In this document: positions 3,271-64,000 of the stretch, piece by piece
Layout of the letters: each line of letters starts with the position of its first letter
Numbering within the stretch: the stretch's first letter is position 1
Source of the DNA: Lycorma delicatula
Taxonomy: Eukaryota; Arthropoda; Insecta; Hemiptera; Fulgoridae
Length of the DNA stretch: 64,000 nt
Direction: 5' to 3'
NCBI RefSeq assembly: GCF_047948215.1
Contig: NC_134467.1
Coordinates: forward strand, 39,988,520 to 40,052,519
Translations under genes and position numbers: made by a program
Notes under the pieces: model-generated
Told to the model about the DNA's origin: nothing
Databases searched by the model: none
What the model saw: the letters and a program-made list of their open reading frames with translations, nothing else

Positions 3271-4576
3271 CAGGTGTCCCATATAAAACGCAACCCAACC
3301 TTATATTGGTAGGTATTGAAATAATAAAAAGGCATGTGTAAATGTAAATGTAATTTTTATTATTACCATCCATTACCTTACATTTAGAGTAAATGTTGGA
3401 AGTAGCCGCCGTCTTCTTGAATACAAGCTTCAATTCTTTTTACAGCGTTTCTTGCAACTTTTTTCAAAGTTTGTGACTGGATATTTAATGCATATTGTTC
3501 AATATTGACTTTCAATCGTTCAAGTGTTTGTAGTTTGTTGCTGTAGGCTTTTTCTTTGAGGTAACCCCGTAGAAAAAAATCCGCCGCAGTAAAATCTGGA
3601 GATCTTGGTGGCCACAAGCCTCGACCGATAACACGATTACCAAAGAATTCCTCAACGAAATCAGAAGTTGAACCTGCGTAGTGCGATGTCGCACCGTCAT
3701 ATTGTGTCTTCCTCTTCCAAGAGTGCGATGAACTGAAATAAAATATCCTGATATCGTTCTGCATTAATGGTGTACTCAAAAAAAATAGGACCGATTATTT
3801 TCTTCCGCGATATCGTGGACCACACGCCCAACTTCTGCGGGTGTAATTGTTTTTTGTGATAAACGTGGGGATTTTCAGCACTCCAAATTCTACTGTTTTG
3901 GCTGTTTACGTAGCCATCCAAATGAAACGGTGCTTCATCTGTGAAAAATAATGAATCCGTAACATTAATTCCCCCACGCAGAAATCGACGGAACCGTTGA
4001 CTATATTGTAGCCGTTTTCTTTGTCGGGCTCAAGAAGTCTATGAACCGTTTGAATCCGATAAGGTCGTAATTGTAATTGTTTGGTCGCCCGATGAACAGT
4101 TGATCTAGACAAATTAATTTCAGCAGACAAACGTCTGATCGATTTATTTGGCGAGGCAAGTAATCTGTCTTTGATTTCAGTGACTATATCTGTATTCAAC
4201 ACTGACGCAGATCTTTTGTGTTCCCTGTTATTAACAGAACCGGTCTCTCTAAATTTTGTGACAAACCTTAATACTGATGTTTTGTTAGGAGCTGGTTTAT
4301 CCGGGTACTTATGGCGAAACAAATCTTGCACTGCGACCACTGATTTCGTACTGAAGTACGACTCTACAATGAAAACACGTTCTTCTAGCGAAAACACCAT
4401 CTTGTCTCTAGCAATACATTGAACGTTATGATTGCATTGTTGTTATTATCGGTAGTGTTCTACCAATGTTCAGATGTTGGACGAGTCCATTTCAGTAACG
4501 AGTAGGGAAGTAAGCTTGACTTTTGAAATTTCATGGATGAGTGATTGATGGGTTGCGTTTTATATAGGACACTCTG
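3271..4576 (-). mobile_element. Tc1/mariner-type DNA transposon, DD38D-like lineage, copy 1
   Basis: The element is 1306 bp, flanked by TA on both sides. Its inverted ends are CAGGTGTCCCATATAAAACG at 3271 and the reverse complement of CAGAGTGTCCTATATAAAAC ending at 4576. It carries one transposase gene on the minus strand, now broken. A sister copy at 41876-43204 is about 90% identical. Confidence 0.9.
3384..4400 (-). pseudogene. Transposase pseudogene of the DD38D-like element (copy 1)
   Basis: Starts at ATG 4400 (MVFSLEERVFIVES) and ends at 3384 (HLL stop). Visible domains are the N-terminal helix-turn-helix with the linker KFRETGSVNN, a second HTH (IRRLSAEINLSRSTVHRA), then a DDE/D catalytic core: first Asp in FTDEA, second in YDGATSH, then WPPRSPDF and the third Asp in AADFF. 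The second and third Asp are separated by 38 residues. Compared with the sister copy it has a 1-nt deletion in an A-run near 4016 and a deletion of about 14 nt near 3707, so it is split into three frames. It would cut and paste DNA at TA sites; this copy cannot. Confidence 0.88.
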
Positions 4577-27786: not shown

Positions 27787-28501
27787 TAGTTCTTCCTACG
27801 CAAGAACTATCGCATGAAAATAAACAAGAACAAAACAAAAGTAATGAACTGTAGTAGAAATAACAAAGATGGACCACTGAATGTGAAAATAGGAGGAGAA
27901 AAGATTATGGATGTAGAAGAATTTTGTTATTTGGGAAGTAGCATTACTAAAGATGGACTAAGCAGGAGCGATATAAAATGCCGAATAGCACAAGCTAAAC
28001 GAGCCTTCAGTAAGAAATATAATTTGTTTACATCAAAATTTAATTTAAATGTCAGGAAAAGAATTTTGAAAGTGTATGTTTGGAGTGTCGCTTTATATGG
28101 AAGTGAAACTTGGACAATCGGAGTATCTGAGAAGAAAAGATTAGAAGCTTTTGAAATCCGGTGCTATAGGAGAATGTTAAAAATTAAATGGATGGAGAAA
28201 GTGACAAATGAAGAGGTATTGCAGCAAATAGATGAAGAAAGAAGCATTTGGAAAAATATAGTTAAAAGAAGAGACAGACTTATAGGCCACATACTAAGGC
28301 ATCCTGGAATAGTCGCTTTAATATTAAAAGGACAGGTAGAAGGGAAAAATTGTGTAGGCAGGCCACGTTTGGAATATGTAAAACAAATTGTTAGGAATGT
28401 AGGATGTAGAGGGTATACTGAAATGAAACGACTAGCACTAGATAGGGAATCTTGGAGAGCTGCATCAAACCAGTCAAATGACTGAAGACAAAAAAAAAAA
28501 A
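27787..28501 (+). mobile_element. LINE family A, copy A5 (best-preserved C-terminus)
   Basis: The plus-strand copy ends in GAAGACA plus about 13 A at 28489-28501. It begins inside the RT/C-terminal region at about 27795. The 9 bp before it (ATAGTTCTT, 27787-27795) are the reverse complement of AAGAACTAT at 27803-27811, giving a snapback junction. No convincing TSD was found. Confidence 0.88.
27814..28485 (+). pseudogene. LINE family A ORF2 C-terminal fragment, 223 codons open
   Basis: Uninterrupted frame from [20 protein letters not shown] through the thumb/C-terminal region ([19 protein letters not shown], then [20 protein letters not shown]) to [13 protein letters not shown] and a stop. 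The RT catalytic box lies upstream of the truncation, so no active enzyme is encoded. It serves as the reference for aligning the other copies; the open frame most likely reflects a recent insertion. Confidence 0.85.
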
Positions 28502-34307: not shown

Positions 34308-34645
34308 TGACATATCCTGTTCAGATCGAACCTGACCAGGATATCATAAAACAAAAAAATGAATGTAATTGGATTATCTGTCGTTTATAGTTAAGAGTAT
34401 GTAAATAAATAAATATACATTACACTGGTGTTTATAAAGAAAAAAATTTTGAACTGAAATATAATAAATACGTAGGTAAACTTATGTAATTTTTATGATG
34501 GGTCATAAAATTAGATTAGTTTTTCTGTCACAATAAGAGTTTTTTAATTAAGATCCTTAAAAAATAACAGGACAATTTTAACTTTATGATGTCAATGTTG
34601 GTGTAACTATTACTTTCCTGTCATGCACTATAGCAGAGCTATATA

Positions 34646-36616
34646 CAACCTGATTCAAGAGGATAGGGAATACTTTGACAACTCATTCTAAAGGCTAAAA
34701 ATAAGAAAAAAGTTCATATAAATATAGGTCCGAAAACGCTTCGTTACAGAATTATACAGGGTGAAAGATTTCACCGCAGTTTCAGTTACTCCGGGTAAAT
34801 TAAGACTTTATGAAATTCTGGGAAGGTCAATTAAGGGGCAAATTCAATTGTTTCTTATGGTTTTTGAGCTGGGAAATCGAAAAACGTTGGTCCCAAAATT
34901 GTATCTCTCTTAGTTTCTACGATATCTCATGTAAAATGCCAAAAATAGGCTAAAAAACACATTTTTTTTAGCTTTGACGTACAATAACGTTGTTAAATTG
35001 GCAATAAATCATACATTTTTTAAACATAAATTGTAGAGAATTTAATTATAAGAAGATTGATGTAAATTAGTGAATGTGTAGGAGCTCCATCAAGTTGGTA
35101 ATACATTTCAATTCGTTTTGCTAAGGGGATATTTTCCGGCAATATAATAAATTCATTACGTAAAAATTCCAGATGATTTCTTCCTGTGACACGAGTTGTA
35201 GTATGAAAGGACCGATTAATTGGTCATCTATGATACCACACCAAACATTCACTGAAAATCGTTGATGGAAATTTTTTTCCATTGTAGCATGTGGGTTTTC
35301 TTCAGATCACCGATGCGCATTTCGTGTGTTGTTTATTCCGTTATGAAAGTAGCTTCATCCGAAAATAGTATAAATGGAATTAATTGTTGATTCCTATTAA
35401 CCCGTTGACAAAACTGCAGGCGGCTGGCGTAGTCACTAGGCTGGAGATGTTGCACTTTCTGGATATGAAAATGATGCAATCCACTATTATTTAACGTCCT
35501 CCATACTCTGTGAAATATTGGGCCGTGTTGCAATTAATCGTATGATCGTTGCCGGACTACGTTGAACCATCTGCAGAATGTTTTCACCTTTATCAACACG
35601 ATTTGCTTGTCGTTCAGATGAAATATGAGCGCTGGGAAGTGTAGCATTCTCACGAAGATTATTAAAAATTCTAATAAATACTTTACGATTTGGTACAACA
35701 CGATCGGGATACCTATGTCGATATTCCGTAACCGCTGCCGAAGAAATTCTATTGCAAAATCCATAGATGAAAATCACGTCAGCATATTCGGCATTAGTGA
35801 AGATACGCGCGTTTTTTAAAACAAAACTAAACAGAATTTCCCTTTTTTTAACAGACTTGATTTTTATACACTGTAAAATTAATACAAAATTACACTTGTT
35901 AACGGTTTTCTGAAATTTTTACGATAAGAATTCGACGTAATACTGCAAACACGATTCATCAGCGAAAGGTTATTTAATACATTACCACAATTAACTGACA
36001 ACAATGAGTAGTATTTAAACAAATTGTGATGAAAAAAGTCAGTGTTGCCAACTTGTTTTCCGTAGGTCTAAAATTATTGTACCTACTAGACACATCTGTT
36101 TTGTTATTTTGTAACATTTTCTTCTAAGTATTCGTCGGTTTTGTTGTTGATAAGAGTCGACATGTTTAAAATTTTATTTGTTTTCTGTAGACATTATTTA
36201 CATCAAATTTCTTATAATTAAATTCTGTTCAATTTGTGTTTAAAAAATGTATGATTTATTGCCAATTTAACAACGTTATTGTACGTCAAAGCTAAAAAAA
36301 ATGTGTTTTTACCCTATTTTTGGCGTTTTACATGAGATATCGTAGAAACTAAGATAGATACAGTCCTGGGACCATTTTTTTCGATTTCCCAGCTCAAAAA
36401 CCATAAGCAACAATTGAATTTGCTCCTTAATTGACCTTTCCAGAATTTCATAAAGCCTTAATTTACCCGGAGTAACTGAAACTCGGGTGAAATCTTTCAA
36501 CCTGTATAACTCTGTAACGAAGCGTTTTCGGACCTATATTTATATGAACGTTTTTCTTATTTTTAACCTCTAGAATGAGTTGTCAAAGTATTGCCCTACC
36601 CTCTTGAATCACTCTG
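34646..36616 (-). mobile_element. Long-TIR Tc1/mariner-like element, copy a
   Basis: 1971 bp flanked by TA. Arms of about 420 bp (34646-35067 and 36196-36616) are inverted copies of each other. The arm carries the recognisable words GGTCCGAAAACGCTTCGTTA, CTCCGGGTAAATTAAG and TTTGACGTACAATAACGTTG. Arms of this length are far longer than the 20-40 bp TIRs of the other mariners here. The interior holds a truncated transposase (35050-35812) and about 380 bp of noncoding subterminal sequence also found in the giant copy at 54465. Confidence 0.88.
35050..35812 (-). pseudogene. Transposase N-terminal half of the long-TIR element
   Basis: Minus-strand frames: RIFTNAEYADVIFIYGFCNR near 35800, YPDRVVPNRKVFIRIFNNLR (first HTH), a second HTH area near 35540, HHFHIQKVQHLQPSDYASRL near 35440, LFSDEATF with the first catalytic Asp near 35350, and GAPTH with the second near 35075. 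It then runs into the left arm, so the C-terminal part with the third Asp is missing. Frameshifts near 35530 and 35333. The 56400-56790 fragment supplies the missing C-terminal half, with a short overlap. Confidence 0.8.
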
Positions 36617-36618
36617 TA

Positions 36619-37840
36619 TTTGCGTGCCGGATTAAACATTTGAGTAGTTCATTTTGTTTTTTAAAGTAAGCCGTTCAATATCTTAAATGTTTTGATTTAT
36701 TATTTAGATCCCTATTACTGTTCCTTTGAGAAAAAAAAGTCAAAAATAGTAAACATCAAAAGAAAATCAATTTTTTTTTCTAATAAAAAAAGGTAATTAT
36801 TATTACAGGAAATTGTTTTGACTCAATAAAGAACGAAATTAATTATTTGTTTTTAACTAATAGATACCATCTAATTTCCAGATGAAATGATACCGATAAA
36901 GTTCATTAAATATTAAACTGTTCTTTTTTTTTCTAAAAATAATAAAAATCTGTTATTTGAAACGTATTGTTGTTGATATCTGTGTTTGTAGTATTATTAT
37001 TATGTAATCGGTTGCCATAGTTACAGGCAAACAAATAAAATCGATGGTTGGTTTTCTCTGTTAGTTGCCGGTTGATATGGTAAAACTCATTTTCGAAGTA
37101 CTTTTTAAAGACGTAACATCTTTTCCTTTAGTGTTTTTTTATTTTTAACTATTGGTTATTAATTATTAGTATTTAAAAATATATTTGTCCGTTTTTAATA
37201 GATTTCAGGGTTAATTGTATAAATTTGTTTAATATTTATAGATACATGTTGTTGGGTTAACAACGATATTTTTCCATATTTTTAATTATTATTTAAAATA
37301 AACGTATTTATAGTTTTTTTTTGTGATGTTACAATGTTTAATTTATTATTTAAAAAACGTATTAGGTTATTTATAAAATTTATAGGCAATTATATTAAAA
37401 TTAATTATAAAAAAAATGTATTTGTTTTTTAAATATTAAAAAAATTATTTAAATTATATAAAAATATTATCCATTGTTTATTATTATTATTATATTTTAT
37501 TTTATTTTTTAATTTCGTTTAATGTAAAGGTAAGTGTAATTATTTATTACGTAGATATATATTTTACAGTTAAATTTTAGCTATAATTAAATTATACTGA
37601 TGGACAAAAAACTTTCTTTTTTTTTTAATGTTTCTCTAAGTGTGATACCATTTCATTAATTGCTTTTTTGCGTAGATTACAGATATGTAAATACAATTTT
37701 TCTATCACTCTAAAATTGAAATAAATTACTCTTCAAAAAAAAAAAATTAAGGGAAAATTTAGTTAATATCTGTAAAATTTATAATTTTGCATGACCATAC
37801 CTGTGTTAGAATCATTTCACTTATGCGCTTTTCTTTTATA
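36619..37840. other. Intergenic AT-rich DNA
   Basis: Very AT-rich with no gene or element recognised. Confidence 0.5.
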
Positions 37841-39985: not shown

Positions 39986-40283
39986 AATTTTTAGTCTATG
40001 ATTAAGTAACGTGAGGTAAACAATATCTTGCTAATAATATATGCTTCTCATGGGAATTTAAAAGGGTATTGTAATCTCTTGTTAATAATGGGTTATAAAT
40101 TTTAAATGTTCAATGGTTTTTAATTATACATTTATTTTAATAATTAAAGTGCAATTAGTAGCTAATGCGATCTCTTTAACGAAAACAATGTTATTTTATT
40201 TACCTGCTTTATGTTTTAATATCTAATTACTATATGCACATTTTTGATTAATTATTTAAAATAATATTAATTTAAAATAAATA

Positions 40284-40742
40284 CAGGGTGATTCAGGAGG
40301 ATAAGCCAATACTTTGACAACTCTTTCTAGAGACTAAAAATAACAAAAAAAGTTAACATAAACGAAAACGCTTCGAGTCGAAAGCGTTAACGGTCCGAAA
40401 ACGCTTCGTTAGCGAGTTATACAGGTTAAAAGATTTCGCCCAAGTTTCAGTTCCTCCGGGTAAATTAAGGCTTTCTGAAATTCTGGGAAGGTCAATTAAG
40501 AGGCAAATTCAATTGTTTCTTATGGTTTTTGAGCTGGGAAATCGAAAAAAAAGGTCCCAGAACTGTATCTCTCTTAATTTCTAAGATATCTCATGTAAAA
40601 CGCCAAAAATAGGGTTAAAAAACACATTTTTTTAATTTGACGTACAATATCGTTGTTAAATTGGGAATAAATCATACACTTCTTAACATAAATTGTAAAG
40701 AATTTAATTATAAGAAAAATGATGTAAATAATGTCAACAGAC
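40284..40742. mobile_element. Solo arm of the long-TIR family (copy b)
   Basis: Begins after TA with CAGGGTGATTCAGGAGGATA and follows the arm consensus for about 455 bp to GATGTAAATAATGTCAACAG. No second arm or interior follows. It contains a local 20-nt repetition around 40367-40395 (CGAAAACGCTTCG twice). Confidence 0.85.
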
Positions 40743-41875: not shown

Positions 41876-43204
41876 CAGGGTGTCCAATATAAAACCCAAA
41901 CTTATATTGGTAGGTATTGAAATAATAAAAAGGCATGTGTAAATGTAAATGTAATTTTTATTATTACCATCCATTACCTTAAATTTAGAGTAAATGTTGG
42001 AAGTGGCCGCCATCTTCTTGAATACAAGCTTCGATTCTTTTTACAGCGTTTCTTGCAACTTTTTTCAAAGTTTCTGGCTGGATATTTAATACAGCTTGAT
42101 CAATATTGACTTTCAATCGTTCAAGTGTTCGCGGTTTGTTGCTGTAGGCTTTTTCTTTGAGGTATCCCCGTAGAAAAAAATCCGCCGCAGTCAAATCTGG
42201 AGATCTTGGTGGCCACAAGCCTCGACCGATAACACGATTACCAAAGAATTCCTCAACGAAATCAGAGGTTCAACCTGCGTAGTGCGATATCGCACCGTCA
42301 TGTTGTAGCCGGCAGTGTCTGTCTTCCTCTTCCAAGAGTGCGATGAACTGAAATAAAATATCCTGATATCGTTCTGCATTAATGGTGTACTCGAAAAAAA
42401 TAGAACCGATTATTTTCTTCCGCGATATCGCACACCACACGCCCAACTTCTGCGGGTGTAATTGTTTTTCGTGATAAACGTGGGGATTTTCAGCGCTCCA
42501 AATTCTACTGTTTTGGCTGTTTACGTAGCCATCCGAATGAAACCGTGCTTCATCTGTGAAAAATAACGAATCCGTAACATTAATTCCGTCACGCAGAAAT
42601 CGACGGAACCGTTGATAATATTGTAGCCGTTTTTCTTTGTCGGGCTCAAGACATCGATGAACCGTTTGAATGCGATGAGGTCGTAATTGTAATCGTTTGG
42701 TCGCCCGATGAACAATCGATTTAGACAAATTAATTTCAGCAGACAAACGTCTGATCGATTTATTTGGCGAGGCAAGTAATCTGTCTTTGATTTCATTGAC
42801 TGTATCTGTATTCAACACCGACGCAGATCTTTTGTGTTCCTTGTTATTAACAGAACCGGTCTCTCTAAATTTTGCGACCAACCTTAATACTGATGTTTTG
42901 TTAGGAGCCGGTTTATCTGGGTACTTATGGCGAAACAAATCTTGCACTGCAACCGCTGATTTTGTACTGAAGTACGACTCGACAATGATAACACGTTCAT
43001 CTAGCGAAAACACCATCTTGTCTCTAGCACAATACACTGAACGTTATGATTGCATTGTTTTTACTATTGGTAGTGTTCTACTGCGTCGCCGCGATGTTCA
43101 GATGTTGGACGAGTCCATTTCAGTAACGAGTAGGGGAGTAAGCTTGACTTTTAAAATTTCATGGATGAGTGATTCATGGGTTGCGTTTTATATGGGACAA
43201 CCTG
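41876..43204 (-). mobile_element. DD38D-like transposon, copy 2 (nearly intact)
   Basis: 1329 bp flanked by TA. Ends are CAGGGTGTCCAATATAAAAC at 41876 and the reverse complement of CAGGTTGTCCCATATAAAAC at 43204. It holds a full-length transposase frame broken by a single stop codon. Its right end is 315 bp upstream of the presumed Amphiphysin start codon. Confidence 0.92.
41985..43016 (-). pseudogene. Full-length DD38D-like transposase with one nonsense codon
   Basis: ATG at 43016 (MVFSLDERVIIVES) to TAA at 41985-41987: 343 codons in one frame except TGA at 42270-42272, where the sister copy has TCA (Ser). Domains: HTH 1 (about residues 10-60), HTH 2 (about 80-115), then the catalytic triad in TDEARFHSDG, QHDGAISH and AADFFLRGYL, with 38 residues between the last two Asp. 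The C-terminus reads KRIEACIQEDGGHFQHLL. No other lesion seen. It could encode a truncated protein with both HTHs and two of the three catalytic Asp. Confidence 0.9.
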
Positions 43205-44790: not shown

Positions 44791-45128
44791 AATCTTTCAG
44801 AAAAATGGTCCTATAGCAAACTTGAAACGTTAAATCGATTTCCATGTTAGGCAGAATACTGTACTAAGTATAATTGTAATTAAAAAGAGACATTGATTGA
44901 AGATTAACTGTTTTAAAGTAAATTTTTTTTTATCTACGAGATGTGTGAGAAAAGTAATGAGATTGGTAACATTACGAGCGATCTGGCAACACTGTGTCTA
45001 TCGGTCTGTGCTAGACCGGCTTGTTCATCCCTTCCACATGCTCAGTACGAGTTTCAACTCCGTTCAGCCAACACATTATTTTTGACAGCGCCATCAGTGA
45101 AATTGTGTTTTTGTTGTGCGTTACGAAA

Positions 45129-46052
45129 ATGGAGCATCGGAATTTAGAGCGACGTTGTGCGGTCAAGTTTTGTGTTAAACTTTGGGAATCAGCGAGTGTG
45201 ACCTTTGAAAAGTCGAAACAGGCGTATGGGGAACATCGCTTATCAAAAGCACAAGTTTTCCGCCGGCACAAATCATTTTTGGAAGGCCGAGAACACGTTG
45301 AAGATCAACTTCGCTTAGGGAGACGTTCAACTTCAACATCTGACGAAAACGTTGAGCGTGTGAGGGTTCTTGTGAGATCGGACCGTCGTTTAACAATAAG
45401 GATGATGAGTGAACAGTTAAATTTAAACATTTTCACCGTACGCGTACATCAAATTTTGACAGACGATTTGGACATGCGAAAGGTTTGTGCGAAATCGGTG
45501 CCGAAAAACCTCACAATGGAAGAAATGGCCAATCGAAGAAACGTGTGCGTTGATCTTCTTGAGAGGATTGACAATGACCAAGAATTCTTCAATCGTGTGA
45601 TCGTTGGTGATGAATCCTGGATATTTGAGCAAGATCTTGAAACAAAGCGGCAAAGCGAAGAGTGGCACACAACGTCATCTCCTCGACCTAAAAAATGTCG
45701 AATGAACAAATCAAACATCAAAACTGTGCTAATTTGCTTTTTTAATAGTAGGGGTTTTCGTGCATAAAGAATTTGTTCCTCCAGGACAAACTGTCAACTG
45801 AGTGTTTTACAAAGGTTTTCTTGAAAGGCTCAGGAAAAGAGTGATTCGCATGAAACCAGACATTGTAGACAAGTGGATGCTTCATCATGACAATGCCCCG
45901 TATCACACAGCCATTTCCATCGGGCAATGTTTGACCTCAAAACGCATCTTTACATTTCCTCAACCCCCCCTCCGCCCTCCATGGTCACCTGATTTGAGAC
46001 CTTTTCCCGAAATTGAAACATTTCTTAAAAGGACGTCATTTTGGAACTCTGG
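45129..46052 (+). pseudogene. Mariner (DD34D-type) transposase pseudogene, split by insertion
   Basis: ATG 45129 gives MEHRNLERRCAVKFCVKLWE with HTH 1 (KAQVFRRHKSFLEGREHVED), HTH 2 (DRRLTIRMMSEQLNLNI), GDESWIFEQDLETKRQSEE (first Asp) and SPRPKKCRMNKSNIK. A frameshift near 45755 and a stop near 45800 follow. The second Asp is in HHDNAPYHTA near 45890; SPDL is present near 45990, but the stretch that should hold the third Asp is deleted. The C-terminus resumes after the LINE at 47236 (IQKTVIDQLKVLPVEAFQRC) and runs nearly into the right TIR. Confidence 0.9.
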
Positions 46053-47227
46053 AGAGTTGGTTAGCTGGCATCTCTCCCGCCACCACCCCATTGGGTCGCC
46101 CTAGAGCATAGACCAAATGTTCCGTGCCAAAAAACGGCTACTGTGCCTCAAAACAGATTTGCGACCTCGTTATTCCTAATACTCGTAGTGAGCTCCTATC
46201 TTGCGTGAGCGGTTAAGCTGGGTGCCGTACAGCACCCGCTTTATGTGTCACTTGTCACATTAAAACTAGATCGGGGAGGCGCACCCCTTGTTATAATTTA
46301 AAACTAAAAAAGTTATAAGTTAAAAAGACGGCAATTTAAGCCGCCACGCCTCGGTAGCTGTTTGCCAGCTAGTGCCTGTCCACCATTTAAAGCGCTTGGA
46401 ACTTATTACTGGCTGATGGCAGCCATTATTTCAAGGAAGACTTCCCACAGACACGCTACAGGAATCAATAAATCTCATTTCTAACGATGACGGTTGAACA
46501 TCGCAACCTCATCGAGGAACTCCCACACGGTCTGACAATGCGGCTCACGCCACATTGACTCACCGTTTATGAGCGGCCAGTTTTCCCCCTGACCTCTAAG
46601 TTCCAGGGTGGCCCGGTCACTGGTCCCCCCCCCCCAAAAGAAGAGCAGTCGAACATTAGATGTTCGTTCGAGTGGACTTGCCCGCAGACACACAACTCAT
46701 CAGCCGCTAGGCGAAACCTGCACAGATATTGCATCAAATTCACATGGTTGGTGAGCACTTGGGCACCCGCCGCCCTTAAAAATGAAGTCGAGGCATACCA
46801 TCCCCCCAGATCCTGTATAAATCTATACAGAGATCTTCCCTTAGTCGTGGTGTGCCATTCATGCTGCCATGCATCCATCGCGAGGCTCCAAAGCCTCTTC
46901 CGCAGGCGGGAAATGGGCAACTGTTCGAAATTTAGATCCGGTGTATTGTGATAGCCGTTCCGTTCCGGTTCTAGCCCGGCCCGGTTTCGGGCCGGGCTAG
47001 AATCCCATATACCTCGGTTTCCCGACCTCTTCGCAACTTCCACATGGCTGCTCGAACTTTCACCACTAAATCGATTGGGAGAGCCTTTCCCAATACGGTA
47101 GTAGCCTCGTAGGAGGTTGTTTTAAAAACACCAGTGCATACAATTAAGGCTCTGCGCTGGGCATTCCTTAAATTTAGAAGCAGTGCTCTATTTCTATCCA
47201 ACCTGTGCGCCCAAACTGGCGCCGCGT
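46053..47227 (-). mobile_element. R1/jockey-like LINE 3' fragment inserted in the mariner
   Basis: Bounded by AACTCTGG at 46045-46052 and 47228-47235, an 8-bp target-site duplication. Minus strand: HQSYAAPVWAHRLDRNRALL then NAQRRALIVCTGVFKT (RT C-terminal region), a frameshift near 47000, SRLRKRLWSLAMDAWQHEWH near 46900, and the zinc-knuckle-like CVCGQVHSNEHLMFDC near 46670 typical of R1-type elements. 46053-46480 is the GC-richer 3' UTR (for example GTGCCGTACAGCACCCGC). No poly(A) tail is visible. Confidence 0.85.
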
Positions 47228-48178: not shown

Positions 48179-48574
48179 AAAAGGTAATGTTTAGATGACT
48201 AACGACCAGTTTAAACCGATTCGATACTGTGTCTATTAAAGGAGGTATGATGATTTCTTTTTGTCTTTAAAAACTCATTTTTTCAACCCCGTGGGTCAGT
48301 AGCTGGTGATATCAAAAAACTTTACTTATATAAGTTTTAGGCTCTTATTCAATAGTAGAAACTTTAAACGAATTCGATATTTTGCTTAATAAGAAAGTTA
48401 TAGCGATATTTTATTTTTTCGAAAAAGTCCCCCCATTTCCACCCCCATGGTCCGATTTTAGCTGTTAACGAACTTGACCGAGATTTTGGGACGAGTTATT
48501 TTTAAGGAGCAATTTGAAAGTTATCGGCCCAAAATTACGGCAGTTATCGTGTGTCCACAAGAAAGTGACATATA

Positions 48575-49708
48575 CAGAGTGATTCAAAGAAACGGGAAAT
48601 TTAAAAAAATTAAATAACGTTAATGAAAAATTATTTTTAGAAAATGAATTTAATTTCATGTAATTGTTCAAATGTTGCCATTTCAGGATACATACATTTT
48701 AGTTTATTTTTTAAAGATGACATCTTCCAGGTGACCTCCTCTTCTACGTAAACACTCACGAAGTCTCTTCGTTAAATTGTTCACGGTTTGACGTAACATC
48801 TCGACTGGAATTTCCGCAATTGTTTCTCGGATCTTTGCCTTCAGTTCTTCGGTTGCAGCTGGTCTACTGTGGAACACTTTGCTTTTAAGGTGACCCCGCA
48901 AAAAGTAATCGCAAGCTGAGAGATCAGGCGATCTGGGAGGCCATCTAATGTCACCGTTTCGTGAAATGACACGTTGCCCAAACAATCGGCGTACAGCTGC
49001 CATCGATATTCGTGCAGTATGAGACGTTGCTCCGTCTTGTTGAAACCAGGCTGTGTTAAGAATCGGTGGAAATCTCTTTTGTTGTTCCACAACAAAGGTT
49101 TCAAGCACGGCTACGTAACGAGCCGATGTCACTGTAATCGCAACACCGTTGTCATCCTCAAAAAAATAAGGGCCTATAACACCGTAAGATGACATAGCAA
49201 ACCACACGGTCACTTTCTGGCTGTGCAACGGACGCCGGTGTAGCTGCGTAGGATTTTCTTGTGCCCGGTATCTGAAATTTTGCTCGTTAACAAATCCACC
49301 GAGGTGGAAATGCGCTTTGTCTGACATCCATAGTTCGTGAACAAACTCTTCGTTATCGTTTATCTTCTGAAGCATGACATTACAGAATTGCGTTCGCACA
49401 ATCTTTTTCATTGCCGAACCGGTTTCCTCAAAATTAGATATCCATGTTTTAATTGCACGTGCTGATGGAACACGGTCGTGCCGTCCCAGATTAAAATGAC
49501 GGCGAAATTCTCTACGCGCACCCTCCACACCGTCATTGTTTTTGTAAAACGCTTTGATAGCAAATGCACGTTGCGCACCACTCCAAGGATCCATGACAAC
49601 TAAATGGCAGGTTAGGTTAGAGAGGCTGGCGCCACTTATCAAGTGGTACCAATCGCCCACGGCTACCAACACAACTTTCAAAATTTCTCGTTTCTTTGAA
49701 TCTTTCTG
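48575..49708 (-). mobile_element. DD41D-type mariner-like element with a DNA-binding-domain deletion
   Basis: 1134 bp flanked by TA. TIRs of about 26 bp: CAGAGTGATTCAAAGAAACG at the left and its counterpart CAGAAAGATTCAAAGAAACG at the right. The block at 57769-58288 is the empty site. Confidence 0.92.
48704..49594 (-). CDS. DD41D-type transposase lacking the second HTH
   Basis: Starts at ATG 49594 (MDPWSGAQRAFAIKAFYKNN) and runs 296 codons without a stop to 48704 (HLEDVIFKK). HTH 1 and its ETGSAMKK linker are present. The protein then jumps to RTQFCNVMLQKINDNEEFVH, so about 80-100 residues containing HTH 2 are missing in frame. The catalytic region is complete: first Asp in MSDKAHF (most relatives have Glu where this has Lys), second in QQDGATSH, third in SACDYF, with 41 residues between the last two. 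Upstream in-frame codons to 49681 are open but lie outside the conserved start. It might give a protein that cuts poorly or competes with full-length enzyme; that is speculation. Confidence 0.82.
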   Translation of the reverse strand: MDPWSGAQRAFAIKAFYKNNDGVEGARREFRRHFNLGRHDRVPSARAIKTWISNFEETGSAMKKIVRTQFCNVMLQKINDNEEFVHELWMSDKAHFHLGGFVNEQNFRYRAQENPTQLHRRPLHSQKVTVWFAMSSYGVIGPYFFEDDNGVAITVTSARYVAVLETFVVEQQKRFPPILNTAWFQQDGATSHTARISMAAVRRLFGQRVISRNGDIRWPPRSPDLSACDYFLRGHLKSKVFHSRPAATEELKAKIRETIAEIPVEMLRQTVNNLTKRLRECLRRRGGHLEDVIFKK

Positions 49709-49849
49709 TATATAAACTTTTGAACTGACGGTGGTTTTGGGTCTGGGGGAATGTGAAACGGGAAGAAATATCGAAATTTTCCGGAAGTCGAATCATGGTA
49801 ACCATTACAATAGGTAGCTTTCTTATGAAATCTACCGGAAATCAGTGAG

Positions 49850-51771: not shown

Positions 51772-53105
51772 CAGAGTTATCATAAAAGAATGATGCGGTT
51801 TTGAATATGGTTTAAATTAAAACAGAATTACAGTTTATGTTTTTTATTTTTCAAATTTGTCGTCTCAATCATTGTTTTACATAATTAATAAATTTCAATA
51901 TGTACGCCCTTAGTCGCTCGACAAATGTCTAAACGATACTCAACTTCTCTCCAAACATTAGTTAACATTTCTTCGTTAACGGTTGTCATTGATTCATTAA
52001 TCCTGTTTTTTAAACGGTTTAGGTCGGTAATTTTTCATTTATAAACAACGCTTTTGATGTGCCTCCGCAAGTAAAAATCGCAAGGTGTCAGGTCTGGACT
52101 CCTTGGAGGCCAAAGTACGGGTCCTTGCCGGCCTATCCATCTATCTCCAAATTTTTCGTTCCAAGCGTCCGTGACCGAAGCATTGAAGTGCGGGGGAGTA
52201 CCATCTTGTTGGAAATGAAGACGATGAATGTTTTCGAGTTCATCCGGCTGAGGAAAGCAATAATCGGTTAATATGGAAAGATACACGACTCCTTTAATTG
52301 TTTTTTCGGCAAAGAAGAAAGGCCCTATTACAGGATTTTTCATCACACCGCACCAAACATTAACTTTAGGCGAATCGCGTTGTTTCTCAATAATTGCGTG
52401 TGGGTTTTCAGATCCCCTATATTCGTGAATTGTGTCTGTTAATGCATCCATTCACATGGAATGTAGCTTCGTCTCTAAAAATTATATCGTCTAAAAATGA
52501 TTCATTTTCACTTATTCTGTCCGACATTTCAACAGCGAAATTGTAACGTTTTACACCATCATCAGGTTTCAATTTCTGCAGTATCTGGATTTTATAAGCG
52601 TGTAATTTCAGTTTTTTACGTAAAACTTTGTGAACTGTTGATTTTGGAATACCTAATTAGAAGCTTCGACGGGGGTTGGACTTCCCAGGACTTCTAATTG
52701 CCGATCGTCTAATTAGTTCAACCGTTTCGTCCGGTACACTTGGTCTGCCAGTTGATTTGTGTTTTTTAACCGATCCGGTTTCTTCGAATCGTTTGAACCG
52801 ACGTGTTATATTATATTTATGTGGTGAATCTCTTCCGAATTCACGTCGTAACGCACTTTGAACTAAAATTACGGATTTTAATTCGGCCATCAATAAAACA
52901 CACTTTGCTTTGTCTTTATACGAGAACATAGTAACTCGCTAAACTCACCGCAACAACAATACAAGAACTGACGTTGTGGTTACAACTGCTGATAAACAAA
53001 CTTTTGGATTGGTGGCTTTCAGGGATATCAGTATAACATCTAGAAATTTCTCTACAATCTTCCTGTGAATTACTGAAACCGCACAATTCTTTTATGATAA
53101 CCCTG
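51772..53105 (-). mobile_element. DD41D (rosa-like) mariner element
   Basis: 1334 bp flanked by TA. Ends are CAGAGTTATCATAAAAGAAT at 51772 and, inverted, CAGGGTTATCATAAAAGAAT at 53105, matching for about 30 bp. One transposase gene on the minus strand. Confidence 0.92.
51885..52929 (-). pseudogene. DD41D transposase pseudogene
   Basis: ATG 52929 (MFSYKDKAKCVLLMAELKSV), HTH 1 with RRFKRFEETGSVKKHKSTGR, a nonsense codon near 52660, HTH 2 (LGIPKSTVHKVLRKKLKL), LDDIIFRDEATFHVNG (first Asp), an extra base near 52407 shifting the frame, QQDGTPPHF (second Asp), WPPRSPDLTPCDFYL (third Asp, 41 residues on), TGA at 52035-52037, then an open run to TATKGxHIE-like CRATKGVHIEIY and stop at 51885. Two stops and one frameshift; otherwise full length (about 348 residues). 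Confidence 0.88.
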
Positions 53106-54462: not shown

Positions 54463-54464
54463 TA

Positions 54465-55891
54465 CAGGGTGATTCAGGAGGATAGGGTAATACTTTGACA
54501 ACTAATTCTAGAGGCTAAAAATAAGAAAAAAAGTTCATATAAACATAGGTCCGAAAACGCTTCCTTAACGAGTTATACAGAGTGAAAGATTTCGCCCGAG
54601 TTTCAGTTCCTCCGGGTAAATTAAGCTTTCTGAAAATCTGGGAAGGTCAATTAAGGGGCAAATTTAATTGTTTCTAATGGCTTTTGTGCTGAGAAATCGA
54701 AAAAAATGGTCCCAGAACTGTATCTATCTTAGTTTCTAAGATATCCCATGTAAAACTACAAAAATAGGGTCAAAAAGCACATTTTTTTAGGTTTGACGTA
54801 CAATAACGTTGTTAAATTGACAATAAATCATATATTTTTTAAACATAAATTATAGAGAATTTAATTATAAGAAGATTGATGTAAATAATGTCAACAGAAA
54901 ACAAATAAAATTTTAAGCATGTCGACTCTTATTAACAACAAAACCAACGAAAACTTTGTAACATGTAATGTTACAAAAAAGAAAACAGATGTGTCTAATA
55001 GGTACAATAATTTTAGACCTACGGAAAACAAGTTGGCAAACTGATTTCATTCATCACAATTTGTTTAAATACTACTCATTGTTGTCAGTTAATTGTGGTA
55101 TTGTGTTAAATAACCTTTCGCTAATTATAAGAAGATTGATGTAAATAATGTCGCTCCCCAGATTTCTCGTGTCACGTAACAATTGCTCCTCCGAGATAAG
55201 GGCGTCGACGTCCTTTATCAGCAAATGGACCCGCCGAACGTCCCTATCTGTTGTTTTTTTTGTATTAGAAAAAATTAAAATATTTATTTTTGTTTTTACA
55301 AAAGATGTTCAGATTGCTGTGCTTTCCAACACAGCGATGCACATTTGCGTTCTAATGTCCATAATGAGATTCACTTGACGCATAACGTTGTTAATGCCGT
55401 AGATATTTCTATTAAATATTCTCATTCACTTCATCGATAGAATGGGATATCGATTCATGAATATCTGTTAAATAACCCCAGAGGAAAAGGGTCATTTTTA
55501 CTACGACTTTTTTGACGTTTTTACTACGAGAGAGAGAGAGAGAGAAAAAGATGAAGAGGGAGAGAGTGTAACAGAGACATATTGAGAAAGAGAGGGGGGA
55601 GAGTGGCAGAGAGAGAGAGAGAGAAAGTGAGAGAGATACAGACATGAGAGAGAGAACGATTTAATTTTTACAATGTAAAAAAATATATGAAATATATAGT
55701 ATTTTATTTTTATATTACATTACAAAAAAAAAATTAACAAGTGAAATATATTATAACAATCTTTCACTTTCTAAAATGAATAGATTTTCAACATTAAAAT
55801 GAGACAAAAAATAATTCTTGTATCTTTACATTGTAAAACAATAAAATAACTTCAAATTTTAAAATATAACTAATAGTAAAATTAAAAAAAA
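54465..55891 (+). repeat. Left arm of the giant inverted repeat
   Basis: Three parts: 54465-54892 is the family arm; 54893-55122 is the family's subterminal region; 55123-55891 is a segment seen only in this element, opening with a repeat of the 30-bp motif AATTATAAGAAGATTGATGT... and carrying a purine microsatellite. A 76-codon open frame (55148-55378) is matched in the other arm only because the DNA is nearly identical. Confidence 0.9.
55525..55660. repeat. (GA)n-rich microsatellite in the left arm
   Basis: Imperfect GA tracts; the inverted partner is the CT-rich tract at about 58750-58880. Confidence 0.92.
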
Positions 55892-56280
55892 GCATAGGTC
55901 CGAAAACGCTTCCTTAACGAGTTATACAGAGTGAAAGATTTCGCCCGAGTTTCAGTTCCTCCGGGTAAATTAAGCTTTCTGAAAATCTGGGAAGGTCAAT
56001 TAAGGGGTAAATTTAATTGTTTCTAATGGCTTTTGTGCTGAGAAATCGAAAAAAATGGTCCCACAACTGTATCTCTTTTAGTTTCTAAGATATCCCATGT
56101 AAAACGCCAAAAATAGGGTCAAAAACACATTTTTTTACGTATGACGTACAATAACGTTGTTAAATTGGCAATAAATCATACATTTTTTAAACATAAATTG
56201 TAGAGAATTTAATTATAAGAAGATTAATGTAAATAATGTCAACAGAAAACAAATAAAATTTTAAACATGTCGACTTTTAT
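55892..56280 (+). repeat. Internal direct duplicate of the arm
   Basis: Nearly identical to 54541-54925 and sharing private variants such as CGCTTCCTTAACGAG and GCTTTTGTGCTGAGAAATCG, but lacking the outermost 76 bp. Ends with CATGTCGACTTTTATTAACA. Confidence 0.9.
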
Positions 56281-56399
56281 TAACAATAAAACAGATTGAA
56301 ACAATTTTTTCGTTATGTACAGTAGAAAATAACTGGAGGAAGAAAGAATACTAACTGCTTTTTTTATAATAATGATAAAATGCTGCTTACAAGTAGTAT

Positions 56400-56790
56400 A
56401 TCATGTGGTTTAATAACTTTCAAAAACGCTACCGTTGTGTTCAATGCACTTTTCAACGCGTTGTAATAGATTTTGTGTTGCCAGTCTAACGGTATCTTTC
56501 CGTTTCTTGATTATAGCTGCAGCGTTGAGAATGCGAGCGATCAGTTCATCGCGTGTGTCTACCTTTTACTTGTAAACCTCATTTTTCAAACATCCCCACA
56601 AACAATAATCCAACGGAGTGAGGTCTGGGGATCTCGGTGGCCAATTAACCGGCCCTCCACGTCCTATCCATTTACCAGCAAACCTTTCATCAATACATTG
56701 TCTTACTTCATTAGTGAAATGTGTAGAAGCTCCATCAAGTCGGTAATACATTTCAATTCGTTTTGCTAAGGGGATATTTTCTAGCAATAA
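56400..56790 (-). pseudogene. Transposase C-terminal half of the long-TIR element
   Basis: Minus strand: NIPLAKRIEMYYRLDGASTH (second catalytic Asp), EVRQCIDERFAGKWIGRGGP, NWPPRSPDLTPLDYCLWGCL (third Asp, 41 residues on), then a stop near 56566 followed by further decayed C-terminal sequence to about 56400. Overlaps and complements the N-terminal half at 35050-35812. A DD41D-type core. The start of the gene is absent here. Confidence 0.82.
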
Positions 56791-56956
56791 TTTTATGCAC
56801 TGTAAAATGAATACAAAATTACACTTTATAACAGTTTTATGAAATTTTTACGATAAGAATTCGACGTAATACTGCAAACACGATTGATCAGCGAAAGGTT
56901 ATTTAAGACATTACCACAATTAACTGACAACAATGAGTAGTATTAAACTGTGGTTA

Positions 56957-57768
56957 ATTATTTGTTACAGCATTTATTTTTAAAGAAATTACAGTTTTTT
57001 TTTTATAGTATATGTTCCACGTCGTCTTATCTGTCAAAAATAAAAACCAATTAATTGAGGTAAAAAAACCTGTTTTTTTTTTTTTTTGATGAAGTACTTT
57101 TTTAAATGTGTAATAAATACGTAAAACCTTTAAATATAATTTATACAGAATTTAATTCTGAACAAAGTGGTGTAAGATAAAATGAATAAAACAAAGAAAG
57201 TTGAAAAAATTTGAATTTTATTTAAAAACAGTACGTTACTGCATTTGTTAGAAAATTATTTATTTAATTTAAATAAAAACAAAATTCTTTTTTGTGATGT
57301 GAAAATTTTGTACAAACATAATTTACTGTTAAAAAATAAAAACTGGAAATTTTGCGACAATTGTGAAATGGAAATAAATAAAGAATACTGGCATAAGAAT
57401 TAATTTTTTATTTATGAAAGAAATATAATAAAGTATTTTAAACATTATTTTCGTAAAGTATTTAAATTTTAAATACCACTGTTGACAAAGTTACTGTTAT
57501 TGATATTTAAAATTTAAATGCCCTCTGGTCTTTCAAATACGTTTTTAATCTTTCATTCTAATATGATCAGCGGACATTTAAATTTTAAAATATTTTTTTC
57601 TTTTTCTTTCTTATTTTTAAAATATTATTTTATTTAATTCTTTTTTTTTTTTTTTTTTTTTTTCTTTTAATTATTTATTTTTTTAATTTAATTTAATTTA
57701 ATTTTTTTATTTATTTATTTATTTTTTATTTAATTTAATTGTATTTTAATTTACTGTATTAATTATTA
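56957..57768. other. AT-rich filler in the core of the giant element
   Basis: No coding pattern. Includes a T-run of about 25 near 57637-57663 and (TTTA)n-like low complexity to 57735. Confidence 0.6.
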
Positions 57769-58288
57769 GGTAGATTTCATAAGAAAGCTTTCTATTATAA
57801 TGTATACCATGATTCGACTTCCAGAATATTTCGACATATCTTCGCGTTTCACATCCCTTAGACCCCAAAACCACCGTCAGTTCAAAAGTTTATATATATA
57901 TATATATATCACTTCCTTTTGGACACGATAACTGCCGTAATTTTCTGCCAATCACTTTCAAATTGATACATAAAATATAACGATCCAAAATCTCGATCGA
58001 GTTCGTTAATGGGCAAAATCGGATGAAAATTAGGGGACTTTTTCGAAAAAAAAAAATATCGCTATAACTTTCTTATTAAGTAAAATATCGAATTCGGTTA
58101 AAATTTCTACTATTCTTTGGATAAGAGCCTAAAACTTATTTAAGTAATTTTTTTGATATCACCAACCAACCATTGGCCCAGGGGGTGAAAAAAATTGGGT
58201 TTGAAAGACAAAAAAATAATCATACCTTCCTTAATAGGCAAAGTATCAAATCGGTTTAAAGTGGTCGTTAGTCTTCTAAACATTACAT
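57769..58288. repeat. Duplicated block, empty-site allele
   Basis: Inverted relative to 48184-49840 but continuous where that copy holds a mariner; at the site it has only (TA)n at 57889-57909. Matches include ATTCGACTTCCAGAATATTT, AACCACCGTCAGTTCAAAAG, ACACGATAACTGCCGTAATT and AAATCTCGATCGAGTTCGTT. Confidence 0.85.
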
Positions 58289-58518
58289 AAATAATTTTTG
58301 ATTTGACCAACCCTTACGGCAAGGGATGACCAAAATGTGGCTAGAAATCAAAAAGATGGGCTTGTCGTATGTTAAACATATGAAACTTTTCACATGCAAC
58401 CATTATCGTATTGAGTAAATTAAAAATTTTTCTTAACTTTAAGGTGGAAATATTTTTTATCCCTTACTTAACACCGGTTAAATCTACCTCTGCCTTCCAG
58501 CGTGCCGAAAGGGATTCA

Positions 58519-59933
58519 TTTTTTTTTAAATTTTACTATTACTTATATTTTAAAATTTGAAGTTATTTGATTGTTTTACAATGTAAAGATACAAGAATTA
58601 TTTTTTGTCTCATTTTAATGTTGAAAATCTATTCATTTTAGAAAGTGAAAGATTGTTATAATATATTTCAGTTGTTAATTTTTTTTTTGTAATGTAATAT
58701 ACAAATAAAATACTATATTTCATATATTTTTTACATTGTAAAAATTAAATCGTTCTCTCTCTCATGTCTGTATCTCTCTCACTTTCTCTCTCTCTGTCAC
58801 TCTCCCCCCTCTCTTTCTCAATATGTCTCGTGTCACACTCTCTCTCTCTTCATCTTTTTCTCTTTCTCTCTCTCGTAGTAAAAACGTCAAAAAAGTCGTA
58901 GTAAAAATGACCCTTTTCCTCTGGGGTTATTTAACAGATATTCATGAATCGATATCCCATTCTATCGATGAAGTGAATGAGAATATTTAATAGAAATATC
59001 TACGGCATTAACAACGTTATGCGTCAAGTGAATCTCATTATGGACATTAGAACGCAAATGTGCATCGCTGTGTTGGAAAGCACAGCAATCTGAACATCTT
59101 TTGTAAAAATAAAAATAAATATTTCAATTTTTTCTAATACAAAAAAAACAACAGATAGGGACGTTCGGCGGGTCCATTTGCTGATAAAGGACGTCGACGC
59201 CCTTACCTCGGAGGAGCAATTGTTACGTGACACGAGAAATCTGGGGGGCGACATTATTTACATCAATCTTCTTATAATTAGCGAAAGGTTATTTAACACA
59301 TTACACAATTAACTGACAACAATGAGTAGTATTTAAACAAATTGTGATGAAAAAAATCAGTTTGCCAACTTGTTTTCCGTAGGTCTAAAATTATTGGAGC
59401 TATTAGACACATCTGTTTTCTTTTTTGTAACATTTTCTTCTAAGTTTTCGTTGGTTTTGTTGTTAATAAGAGTCGACATGTTTAAAATTTTATTTGTTTT
59501 CTGTTGACATTATTTACATCAATCTTCTTATAATTAAATTCTCTACAATTTATATTTAAGAAATATATGATTTATTGTCAATTTAACAACGTTATTGTAC
59601 GTCAAACGTAAAAATATGTGTTTTTGACCCTATTTTTGGCGTTTTACATGAGATATTGTAGAAACTAAGAGAGATACAGTTCTGGGACCAACGTTTTTCG
59701 ATTTCCCAGCTCAAAAACTATAAGAAACAATTGAATTTGCCCCTTAATTGAACTTCCCAGAATTTCAGAAAGCCTTAATTTACCCGGAGGAACTGAAACT
59801 CCGGCGAAATCTTTCACCCTGTATAACTCACTAACGAAGCGTTTTCGGACCTATGTTTATATGAAATTTTGTCTTATTTTTAGTCTCTAGAATGAATTGT
59901 AAAAGTATTGCCTTATCCTCCTGAATCACTCTG
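58519..59933 (-). repeat. Right arm of the giant inverted repeat
   Basis: Inverted partner of 54465-55891. The CT-rich tract lies at 58750-58880; the open-frame twin is 59254-59024 (four differences in the 231 bp compared). The 30-bp junction motif occurs inverted at 59250-59279 and 59506-59535. The outer end is CAGAGTGATTCAGGAGGATA (inverted) next to TA. Confidence 0.9.
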
Positions 59934-59935
59934 TA

Positions 59936-60531: not shown

Positions 60532-61574
60532 TTTTTTTTTGTCTTCAGTCATTTGACTGGTTTGATGTAGCTCTCCAAGATTCCCAATCTAGTGCTAGTC
60601 GTTTCATTTCGGTATATCCCCATATACATTCTAAATTCCTAACAATTTGTTTTACATATTCCAAACATTGCCCGCCTGCACAATTTTTTCCTTCTAGCTG
60701 TCCCTCCAATATTAAAGCGATTATTCCAGGATGCCTTAATATGTGGCCTATAAATCTGTTTTTTCTTTTAACTATATTTTTCCAAATGCTTCTTCCTTCA
60801 TCTGTTTTCCGCAACATCTCTTCATTTGTCACTTTATCCATCCATCTGATTTTTAACATTCTCGTATAGCAGCACCACAATTCAAAAGCTTCTAATCTTT
60901 TCTTCTCAGGTACTCCGATCGTCCAAGTTTCACTTCAATATAAAGCTACGCTTCAAACACACACTTTCAAATATCTTTTCCTGACATTTAAATTAATTTT
61001 CGATGTAAACAAATTATATTTCTGACTGAAGACTTGTTTCGTCTGTGTTATTCAGTATTTTATATCGCTCCTGCTTCGTCCATCTTTAGTAATTCTACTT
61101 CCCAAATAACAAAATTCTTCTACCTTCATAATCTTTTCTCCACCTATTTTCACATTCTTTGTTATTTCTACTACATTTCATTACTTTCGTTTTGGTCTTG
61201 TTTATTTTCACGCGGTAGTTCTTGCGTAGGATTTCATCCATGCCATTCATTGTTCCTTCTAAAAACTTTTTACTCTCGGCTAGAATTACTATATCATCAG
61301 CAAATCGTAGCATCTTTAACCTTGTGCTGTTACTCCGGATCTAAATTGTTCTTTAACATCATTAACTGCTAGTTCCATGTAAAGATTAAAAAGTAACGGG
61401 TATAGGGAACATCCTTGTCGGATTCCATTTCTTTTTACGGCTTATTTCTTATGTTCTTCAATTATTACTGTTGCTGTTTGGTTCCTGTAAATGTTAGCAA
61501 TTCTTCTATATCTGTATTTGAACCCTAATTTTTTTTAAATGCTGGTTACAATGTTTTTTTTTTAAATGGTTAAA
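60532..61574 (-). mobile_element. LINE family A, copy A9
   Basis: 5'-truncated LINE on the minus strand with a 13-bp duplication TACAGTGGTTAAT at 60519-60531 and 61575-61587. T-run at the 3' side. Legible: RLALDWESWRATSNQSND near 60550-60600, [14 protein letters not shown] (RT catalytic box) near 61270-61313. The last about 35 nt before the right TSD are T-rich and not clearly LINE-derived. Several frameshifts. Confidence 0.9.
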
Positions 61575-62680: not shown

Positions 62681-64000
62681 CAGGGTGATTTTTTATTCCT
62701 GTTACCCAATTGTTAATGTCTGGTAATTTTTTTATAAGAAAGGGAAACTTTGTTTTGTGACACGAAGTTGGTACCGCTACTCAACCGGTATAGATGCGGC
62801 AGTGCGAGTTGATTCTCCTTGAACTGTGCAAACTTTTGTGCCGTTTCCGGTCGTGTTACGAACAGAATGTCTTTTACCGTAGAACAACGAGTTTTCATTC
62901 TTGAACAATATTTTGCTACGAAATCGTACGCGAATGTAAAAGAATCATTTCATATTAAATTTGTTGGTGTTCCTCCGCCAGAAAAAATATCAATTTCTAG
63001 GCTAGAAAACCGATTTCGAGAGACAGGTAGTGTTTGCGACAGAAAACGTAACGGTCGACAAACTCGCTTGACAGATGACGTTTTAGAGAATGTGAAAACA
63101 AGATCGCTCAATTCTCCACGGAAACGTTTACGAAAATTTTTCACGAAAGTCGGTTTGTCATATTTGAGTGTTCAGAAAGCCGCTAAAAAATTGAAATCGT
63201 ATCCGTATCGCGTACTATTAGTCCAAGAGCTTCAGCCTCCAGATTTAAACAAGCGATTCCAATATTACCGTCGGTTTAGGTCTCTCGTAAACGATAACGG
63301 AATCGAATTTTTAAACACAGTGTTCTTTAGTGATGAAGCTTGGATCCATCTCGATGGTTATGTGAACAGTCAAAACTGTCGAATTTGGGCGGTTGAAAAT
63401 CCTAACGCTTTACAAGACAAATCTTTGCATCCTGAAAAAATTGGTGTGTGCTGTGCGATATCTCATCATCGTATAGTCGGACCCGTATTCTTCGAATAGA
63501 CAGTAAATGGTGAAGTATACAGGAATATTTTGCACCAATTTGTGTCCTTCCTGGAACCTCAAGAACGGTATTGCCGGTTTCAACAAGACGGCACTACATG
63601 CCACACGTCTCGAGAAACCTTGGATTTTCTGCAAGAGTTCTTTGATGAAGGAATAATAAACAAAGGACTTATGGCGTCCGAGGTCTCCAGACCTCATATC
63701 TCCTGACTACTTTTTCGGGAGCTGTATTAAGTTCGACGCCTTCAAAAACAATCCTCACACTATTGGTGAACTTAAAGTCAATGTTACAGACGAATATTTC
63801 CAATGCAACTCTTAAAATGGTTTCTGCTAATATGCTGAAAAGAGTCCGTGCATGTATAACCACAAGGGGTGGGCATTTTGAGCATATTCTTTAACAATTA
63901 TGTAAGTAATAGCTTTTTATTAAATCTCTTTTGTAAGTTACAAATATATTTTTTATTCCATCTAAATTTCCCTTTCCTAAATTACATTTAAAATTGGGTA
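62681..64000 (+). mobile_element. DD38D-like transposon, third type, right end cut by window
   Basis: Starts after TA with CAGGGTGATTTTTTATTCCT, then GTTACCCAATTGTTAATG. The last bases of the window, AAAATTGGGTA, are the inverse of TACCCAATT, so the right TIR begins at about 63991 and should end some 22 bp past the window. Confidence 0.88.
62867..63894 (+). pseudogene. DD38D-like transposase pseudogene
   Basis: ATG 62867 gives MSFTVEQRVFILEQYFATKS; HTH 1 with ISRLENRFRETGSVCDRKRN, HTH 2 (KVGLSYLSVQKAAKKL), FFSDEAWIHLDGYVNS (first Asp), GPVFFE then TAG at 63497-63499, FQQDGTTCHTS (second Asp), a frameshift near 63670, RPRSPDLISPDYFFG (third Asp, 38 residues after the second), another frameshift near 63790, and TTRGGHFEHIL with stop TAA at 63892-63894. 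About 342 residues when traced through the lesions. Same architecture as the 343-codon transposase at 41985-43016, but clearly a different family. Confidence 0.88.

What the first reader, a model, noticed from the sequence alone, without database searches (positions are those of the whole stretch)
54465..59933. Giant 5.5-kb palindromic element whose inner arms are more alike than its tips
Seen: arms of about 1.42 kb flanked by TA. In the 231 bp at 55148-55378 versus 59024-59254 I count 4 differences (about 98% identity). The outermost about 105 bp of the two arms differ at roughly 15 positions (about 86%). A single old inverted repeat should diverge evenly. Inference: the 770-bp inner segment was copied from one arm to the other recently (gene conversion or break-induced inverted duplication), or two elements of different age were fused at their tips. 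No ordinary Tc1/mariner element is built this way.
Basis: partly seen in the sequence, partly recalled or inferred. Interest (0 to 1): 0.85.

Follow-up and report, generated by a model that had tools for sequence, protein, structure and literature searches.

The report
Transposon end copied onto other end
An insect jumping gene took up a piece of repetitive DNA near one end and later had about 1.1 kb of that end copied in reverse into its other end, most likely during faulty DNA repair, so it now looks like a giant palindrome whose inside is younger than its tips.

Summary
The palindrome is real: 54465-59933, TA on both sides, arms ~1.42 kb, 62 substitutions in 1,413 aligned columns. Divergence changes near 54790: 32/327 outside, 30/1086 inside; 0 of 2,000 shuffles reach this. 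The tips are not odd: in 12 other copies the two terminal inverted repeats (TIRs) differ by 9.1% there, here 9.6%. The unusual part is the inside.

Other copies of this DD41D Tc1/mariner-type family have ~480-bp TIRs and a subterminal block on the right only: right in 23 of 24 fetched copies, left in 0 of 24. Here that block plus ~0.74 kb of captured repeat DNA also sits, inverted, on the left, and a displaced left TIR survives inside at 55890-56292. The left tip groups with that buried TIR (bootstrap 100); the inner TIR part of the left arm groups with the right arm (93). Both duplicates are equally diverged (5/216, 34/1125).

So the right end was copied, inverted, into the left end, most likely by repair synthesis with template switching. 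TIR extension of this sort is published for Galileo.

The parts
54463..54464 (.). TA, left flank (target-site duplication of Tc1/mariner type); the right TA is 59934-59935
   Evidence: read from sequence
54465..54790 (+). Left tip: left-TIR-type sequence. Switch to right-arm type lies somewhere in 54746-54820
   Evidence: 54541-54756: 5/216 differences to the buried TIR, 19/216 to the right arm; bootstrap 100 with the buried TIR; change point 54790
54791..55125 (-). Inverted copy of the right end: inner TIR and right-side subterminal block
   Evidence: subterminal block right-sided in 23 of 24 fetched copies, left-sided in 0 of 24; alignment
55122..55891 (-). Inverted copy of the captured DNA: 31-bp TIR scrap 55122-55152, gag-like scrap about 55163-55254, repeat H to 55891
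55890..56292 (+). Buried left TIR, lacking its outermost ~76 bp
   Evidence: 95.8% to 54541-54944; trees
56293..56947 (-). Internally deleted body with transposase remnant (56566-56787, DDE_3 match below the curated cut-off, DD41D spacing)
   Evidence: 22 of 39 other scored genome places match to exactly 56947
56948..59249 (+). Captured DNA: repeat H with a gag-like scrap at its right end
   Evidence: 56944-59182 colinear with C13:18477247-18474145 at 80-88%
59250..59280 (+). 31-bp scrap of right TIR; its junction to the subterminal block is shared by both arms
   Evidence: identical to 59506-59536
59277..59933 (+). Right end: subterminal block (first 61 bp repeat 56887-56947) and right TIR
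58521..59933 (-). Right arm of the palindrome, template of the left arm's inner part

Best explanation
One copy of an internally deleted DNA transposon (Tc1/mariner type, DD41D transposase, ~480-bp TIRs) was rearranged. Step 1: its right end acquired about 2.3 kb of repetitive DNA (repeat H, a gag-like scrap, a 31-bp scrap of its own TIR). Step 2: the left TIR was rebuilt with the right end as template. Read from the left tip, the sequence is left TIR, switches at 54746-54820 to the matching but inverted right TIR, continues inward through the right subterminal block and the captured DNA as far as 58521, then returns to the left TIR near its position 77. The inverted repeat grew from ~480 bp to ~1.42 kb and the older left TIR was left inside. 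Shown: the mosaic, its direction (right to left), the order of the two steps. Supported: that both duplicates date from one event. Inferred: that the copying was break or gap repair with template switching.
For: Subterminal block right-sided in 23 of 24 fetched copies, left-sided in 0 of 24. Left tip's nearest neighbour among 36 TIRs is the buried TIR (5/216; next 15/215); bootstrap 100 outer, left + right arm 93 inner; pair-restricted states 8 against 0 outer, 0 against 2 inner. Both duplicates equally diverged, 5/216 and 34/1125, p 0.82. The TIR-scrap/subterminal junction is in both arms, so capture came before inverted copying. Shared TAAAC at 56947 between element and a relative of the captured DNA, a short A-run at 55890. 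Tips as diverged as in 12 other copies.
Against: In 54757-54892 the left arm is not closest to the right arm by raw count: 8/135, against 6/106 for L017R and 8/136 for both TIRs of L025; the switch there rests on two shared states and bootstrap 93. That stretch is also more diverged than the rest of the copied tract (8/135 against 26/990, p 0.054). The change-point test on the three TIRs alone is modest (342 of 10,000 permutations). Only one such copy was seen. The repair pathway cannot be seen in a finished sequence.
Confidence: 0.82

Rival explanations
1. Local gene conversion between the arms of an element that was already symmetrical made the inner part young.
For: Inner arms more alike than tips; long inverted repeats can convert each other (general knowledge).
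Against: Conversion needs both arms in place; 0 of 24 copies have the subterminal block on the left. It does not explain the buried TIR or why the tract ends where that TIR begins. Divergence across the copied tract is not significantly patchy (13/328 against 17/758).
Confidence: 0.07
2. Two elements were fused or nested, or aberrant transposition joined ends of sister copies.
For: The element holds three TIR copies and repeats of its own ends.
Against: Only two outer TAs and two tips; the buried TIR lacks its tip; both arms share the same private junctions. Transposase-driven joining of ends is not excluded as the trigger of the break.
Confidence: 0.05
3. Assembly artefact: the contig folds back on itself, or two haplotypes were joined head to head.
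For: No reads were available; 2-3% inner divergence could be allelic.
Against: The arms stop at TA with unrelated flanks; the third TIR lies on one side only; outer divergence is that of ordinary TIR pairs; the assembly is in 14 contigs.
Confidence: 0.04
4. No event: TIR tips in this family simply diverge faster than inner parts.
For: True in part: in 12 other copies outer TIR 315/3457 against inner TIR 95/1597, p 0.0001.
Against: Explains only the level of the tips; not the ~0.95 kb of right-end and captured DNA on the left, the buried TIR, or the change of tree partner.
Confidence: 0.02

Closest known systems
Galileo (P superfamily, Drosophila) copies with extended TIRs (PMC3573991: passages and first part of the Discussion; PMC4168063: passages and one section)
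   Same: Non-TIR sequence becomes inverted in both ends; repair of one TIR from the other with a tract running past the TIR was proposed; foreign TE pieces in one TIR transferred to the other.
   Different: Another superfamily, TA target site; the displaced TIR is still present here; Galileo has many such copies, I saw one here.
Long-TIR (LTIR) DD41D elements of aphids, e.g. Apismar5.1 (PMC5490172, passages)
   Same: DD41D spacing, ~460-466-bp TIRs and 2.3-kb elements there; ~480-bp TIRs and 2.40-2.46 kb here.
   Different: TIR sequence differs from the one printed there; no tree made; the palindromic form is not described in the passages I saw.
Pack-TIRs formed by gap filling with template switching in animals (PMC8277862, passages)
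   Same: Foreign filler inside a TIR transposon, short microhomology at junctions.
   Different: The filler here is repetitive DNA and was then duplicated into the opposite end.

Membership tests
Tc1/mariner, long-TIR DD41D group | TA target-site duplication | tested here: met
   TA at 54463-54464 and 59934-59935
Tc1/mariner, long-TIR DD41D group | 41 residues between second and third catalytic D | tested here: met
   41 in the window remnant
Tc1/mariner, long-TIR DD41D group | TIR above ~460 bp, full element above 2.3 kb | tested here: met
   TIR ~480 bp; 2.40-2.46 kb in 4 of 5 fetched longer copies, the fifth lacks one full end
Tc1/mariner, long-TIR DD41D group | Helix-turn-helix and DDE domains in the transposase | tested here: met
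   L037 frame, 311 aa: DUF4817 above cut-off; DDE_3 27.4 bits, just under its cut-off of 28.6
Tc1/mariner, long-TIR DD41D group | Groups with LTIR/rosa/VS transposases in a tree | not tested
   no reference transposases were aligned
TIR extension by recruitment (Galileo-like process) | Sequence next to one TIR in ordinary copies is inverted into both ends | tested here: met
   23 of 24 copies right-sided, 0 of 24 left-sided, here both
TIR extension by recruitment (Galileo-like process) | Extended copies have themselves transposed | tested here: inconclusive
   only the two arms match 55123-55891 over full length; 40 of 1,151 candidates scored
Galileo / P superfamily | 7-8-bp target-site duplication and P-type transposase | tested here: not met
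   TA flanks; DUF4817/DDE_3 transposase
Pack-TIR | Captured non-TE sequence | tested here: inconclusive
   captured DNA is repetitive, in part gag-like; its origin is not settled

The most novel reading that the evidence does not exclude
If transcribed, the 1.4-kb arms would fold into a long double-stranded RNA that carries the TIR and the block upstream of the transposase; the rearranged copy could then silence its own family, as Mu killer does for maize Mutator (PMC3440606, search listing only). No call tested transcription.
Probability: 0.06. Interest if true: 0.65.

Novelty: new variant of a known kind. Interest (0 to 1): 0.33.

Why it matters
It is an unusually readable record of how a transposon end is rebuilt: because the displaced TIR is still there, donor end, direction, both switch points and relative age can be read from one copy. 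It shows in a DD41D Tc1/mariner-type element a kind of TIR extension described for Galileo, and hints why long TIRs keep arising: each TIR can act as template for the other and drag neighbouring or captured DNA along. It also warns that uneven divergence along a long inverted repeat need not mean ongoing gene conversion.

Tried and rejected
Host-gene capture: a frame in the captured segment first looked like a host exon. No Pfam match and no PDB match. The genome search returned 28 short copies of it among 51 matches; in the four I translated (L005-L008) it sits in longer open frames, one of them (L008) with a CCHC zinc-knuckle pattern (motif recalled, not scored by a call), so I read it as a gag-like retrotransposon scrap.

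Purifying selection on the 76-aa ORF: its 4 differences between the arms are all amino-acid changes (translations).

A deletion derivative of the 48.2-49.8 kb element inside the palindrome: rejected; 57769-58286 is a repeat whose other copy at 48184-49836 carries a separate insertion.

Extra errors in the newly made left arm: 17 changes on the left, 8 on the right, 3 unresolved, over three stretches of the copied tract; p 0.11, not significant, and some lie in clusters that may be alignment effects.

Never answered: genome searches with the captured interior (56948-57590) and with the arm junction (55040-55240). How common repeat H is, and whether that junction exists elsewhere, rest, which scored 40 candidates each.

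Literature: seven answered searches; in their listings and the passages I read I saw no such rearrangement in a Tc1/mariner element. That is not proof of absence.

Full report
Observation. The inverted repeat is real. The element is 54465-59933 with TA on both sides. The arms align over 1,413 columns with 62 substitutions. Divergence is uneven: the best single change point is 54790, with 32/327 differences outside and 30/1086 inside; 0 of 2,000 permutations reach that value.

What the parts are. BLAST of the region against the window shows a third copy of the outer arm, 54541-54944, inside at 55890-56292, exactly where the left arm ends. A search of the window's own 2.2-Gb assembly with 56293-56960 scored 40 of 1,932 candidates: this element, 22 places that end at query position 655 (window 56947), 1 that ends at 609 and 16 that end at 489-497. 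I fetched 19 of the 22 (L014-L032) and 5 of the 16 (L033-L037). The short form is TIR (~480 bp), body, subterminal block, TIR; 11 of the 19 have both ends complete, 1,721-1,755 bp. The longer form is 2.40-2.46 kb in the 4 of 5 with both ends, and one natural frame of 311 aa (L037) has a DUF4817 helix-turn-helix and a DDE_3 match just under its cut-off. The spacing between second and third catalytic D is 41 in the window remnant. This agrees with the long-TIR DD41D group of aphids (PMC5490172, passages), but no tree was made.

Sidedness. The subterminal block lies on the right (transposase 5') side in 23 of 24 fetched copies, is missing in one (L016, truncated right TIR) and lies on the left in 0 of 24. 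In the palindromic element it is on both sides.

Mosaic. I aligned 43 TIR sequences: left tip, right tip and buried TIR of this element, both TIRs of the copy at 34641-36619, and 38 from L014-L032. In the outer segment (54541-54756) the left tip's nearest of 36 neighbours is the buried TIR (5/216; next 15/215) and the pair has bootstrap 100. In the inner segment (54757-54944) left and right arms pair with bootstrap 93. States shared by a pair and present in at most 10% of other TIRs: 8 for left tip + buried TIR and 0 for left + right in the outer segment; 2 for left + right and 0 for left + buried in the inner one. Against this: by raw count the inner stretch 54757-54892 of the left arm is no closer to the right arm (8/135) than to L017R (6/106) or L025 (8/136), and a change-point test on the three TIRs alone is modest, 342 of 10,000 permutations. 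The stronger evidence that the inner arm is right-end DNA is the subterminal block and the captured DNA themselves.

Control for the tips. In 12 other copies (11 genome copies and 34641-36619) left and right TIRs differ by 315/3457 in the outer and 95/1597 in the inner part; here by 28/291 and 8/135. So the tips are as different as usual, and a mild outer-inner gradient within TIRs is normal in the family. What stands out is the young inner arm.

Ages and order. The duplicate of the TIR (left tip and buried TIR, 5/216) and the inverted duplicate (54751-55891 against the right arm, 34/1125) are equally diverged (p 0.82), as one event would give; with so few differences the test is not strong. 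Both arms share a private junction, a 31-bp TIR scrap joined to the subterminal block, so the captured DNA was in the right end before it was copied.

Captured DNA. 56944-59182 is colinear at 80-88% with C13:18477247-18474145 of the same assembly, which also continues into a gag-like sequence. That locus has ~0.86 kb extra, including an internal duplication, and is a relative rather than a proven donor. At 56947 the element and that relative share TAAAC. The search with 55123-55891 found only the two arms over full length; 40 of 1,151 candidates were scored.

Mechanism. The simplest account is repair of a break or gap in the left TIR with the right end as template: left tip, a switch by homology inside the TIR onto the inverted right TIR, ~1.1 kb read inward, return to the left TIR near position 77 at a short A-run. 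Mosaic, direction and order are shown; one event is supported; the repair pathway is inferred. Repair of one Galileo TIR from the other with a tract running past the TIR was proposed (PMC3573991, passages), and foreign DNA passed from one TIR to the other is reported in D. willistoni (PMC4168063). Capture by gap filling with template switching is described for animal TIR transposons (PMC8277862, passages).

Verdict. Observation confirmed. This is a clear case of a known process in an element type for which my searches did not show it.

Noticed in passing
48570-49714 and 57769-58286: An element with a DD41D transposase frame (325 aa) and ~33-bp inverted ends sits in a repeat whose uninterrupted counterpart lies inside the palindrome.
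   Followed up: partly
34641-36619 and 40278-40741: A ~2-kb relative of the palindromic element with both ends, and a single TIR of the same family with a 25-bp insertion.
   Followed up: partly
3384-4400, 42270-43037, 52035-52451, 62819-63499: Further transposase-like frames; DUF4817 above cut-off in 3906-4400, 42270-43037 and 62819-63499. The window is dense with Tc1/mariner-type remains.
   Followed up: partly
10574-11038, 45021-46104: Frames that look like mariner transposase (label recalled).
   Followed up: no
17570-17989, 27814-28485, 60545-60880: Three copies of one C-terminal frame ending SNQSND, probably a non-LTR retrotransposon (label recalled).
   Followed up: no
13616-14038 and L009/L010 (C13:18475595-18476006): TIR-like sequences only ~65-67% identical to the family's TIR, i.e. 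an older related family; a similar relic lies inside the captured DNA at about 57059-57238.
   Followed up: partly
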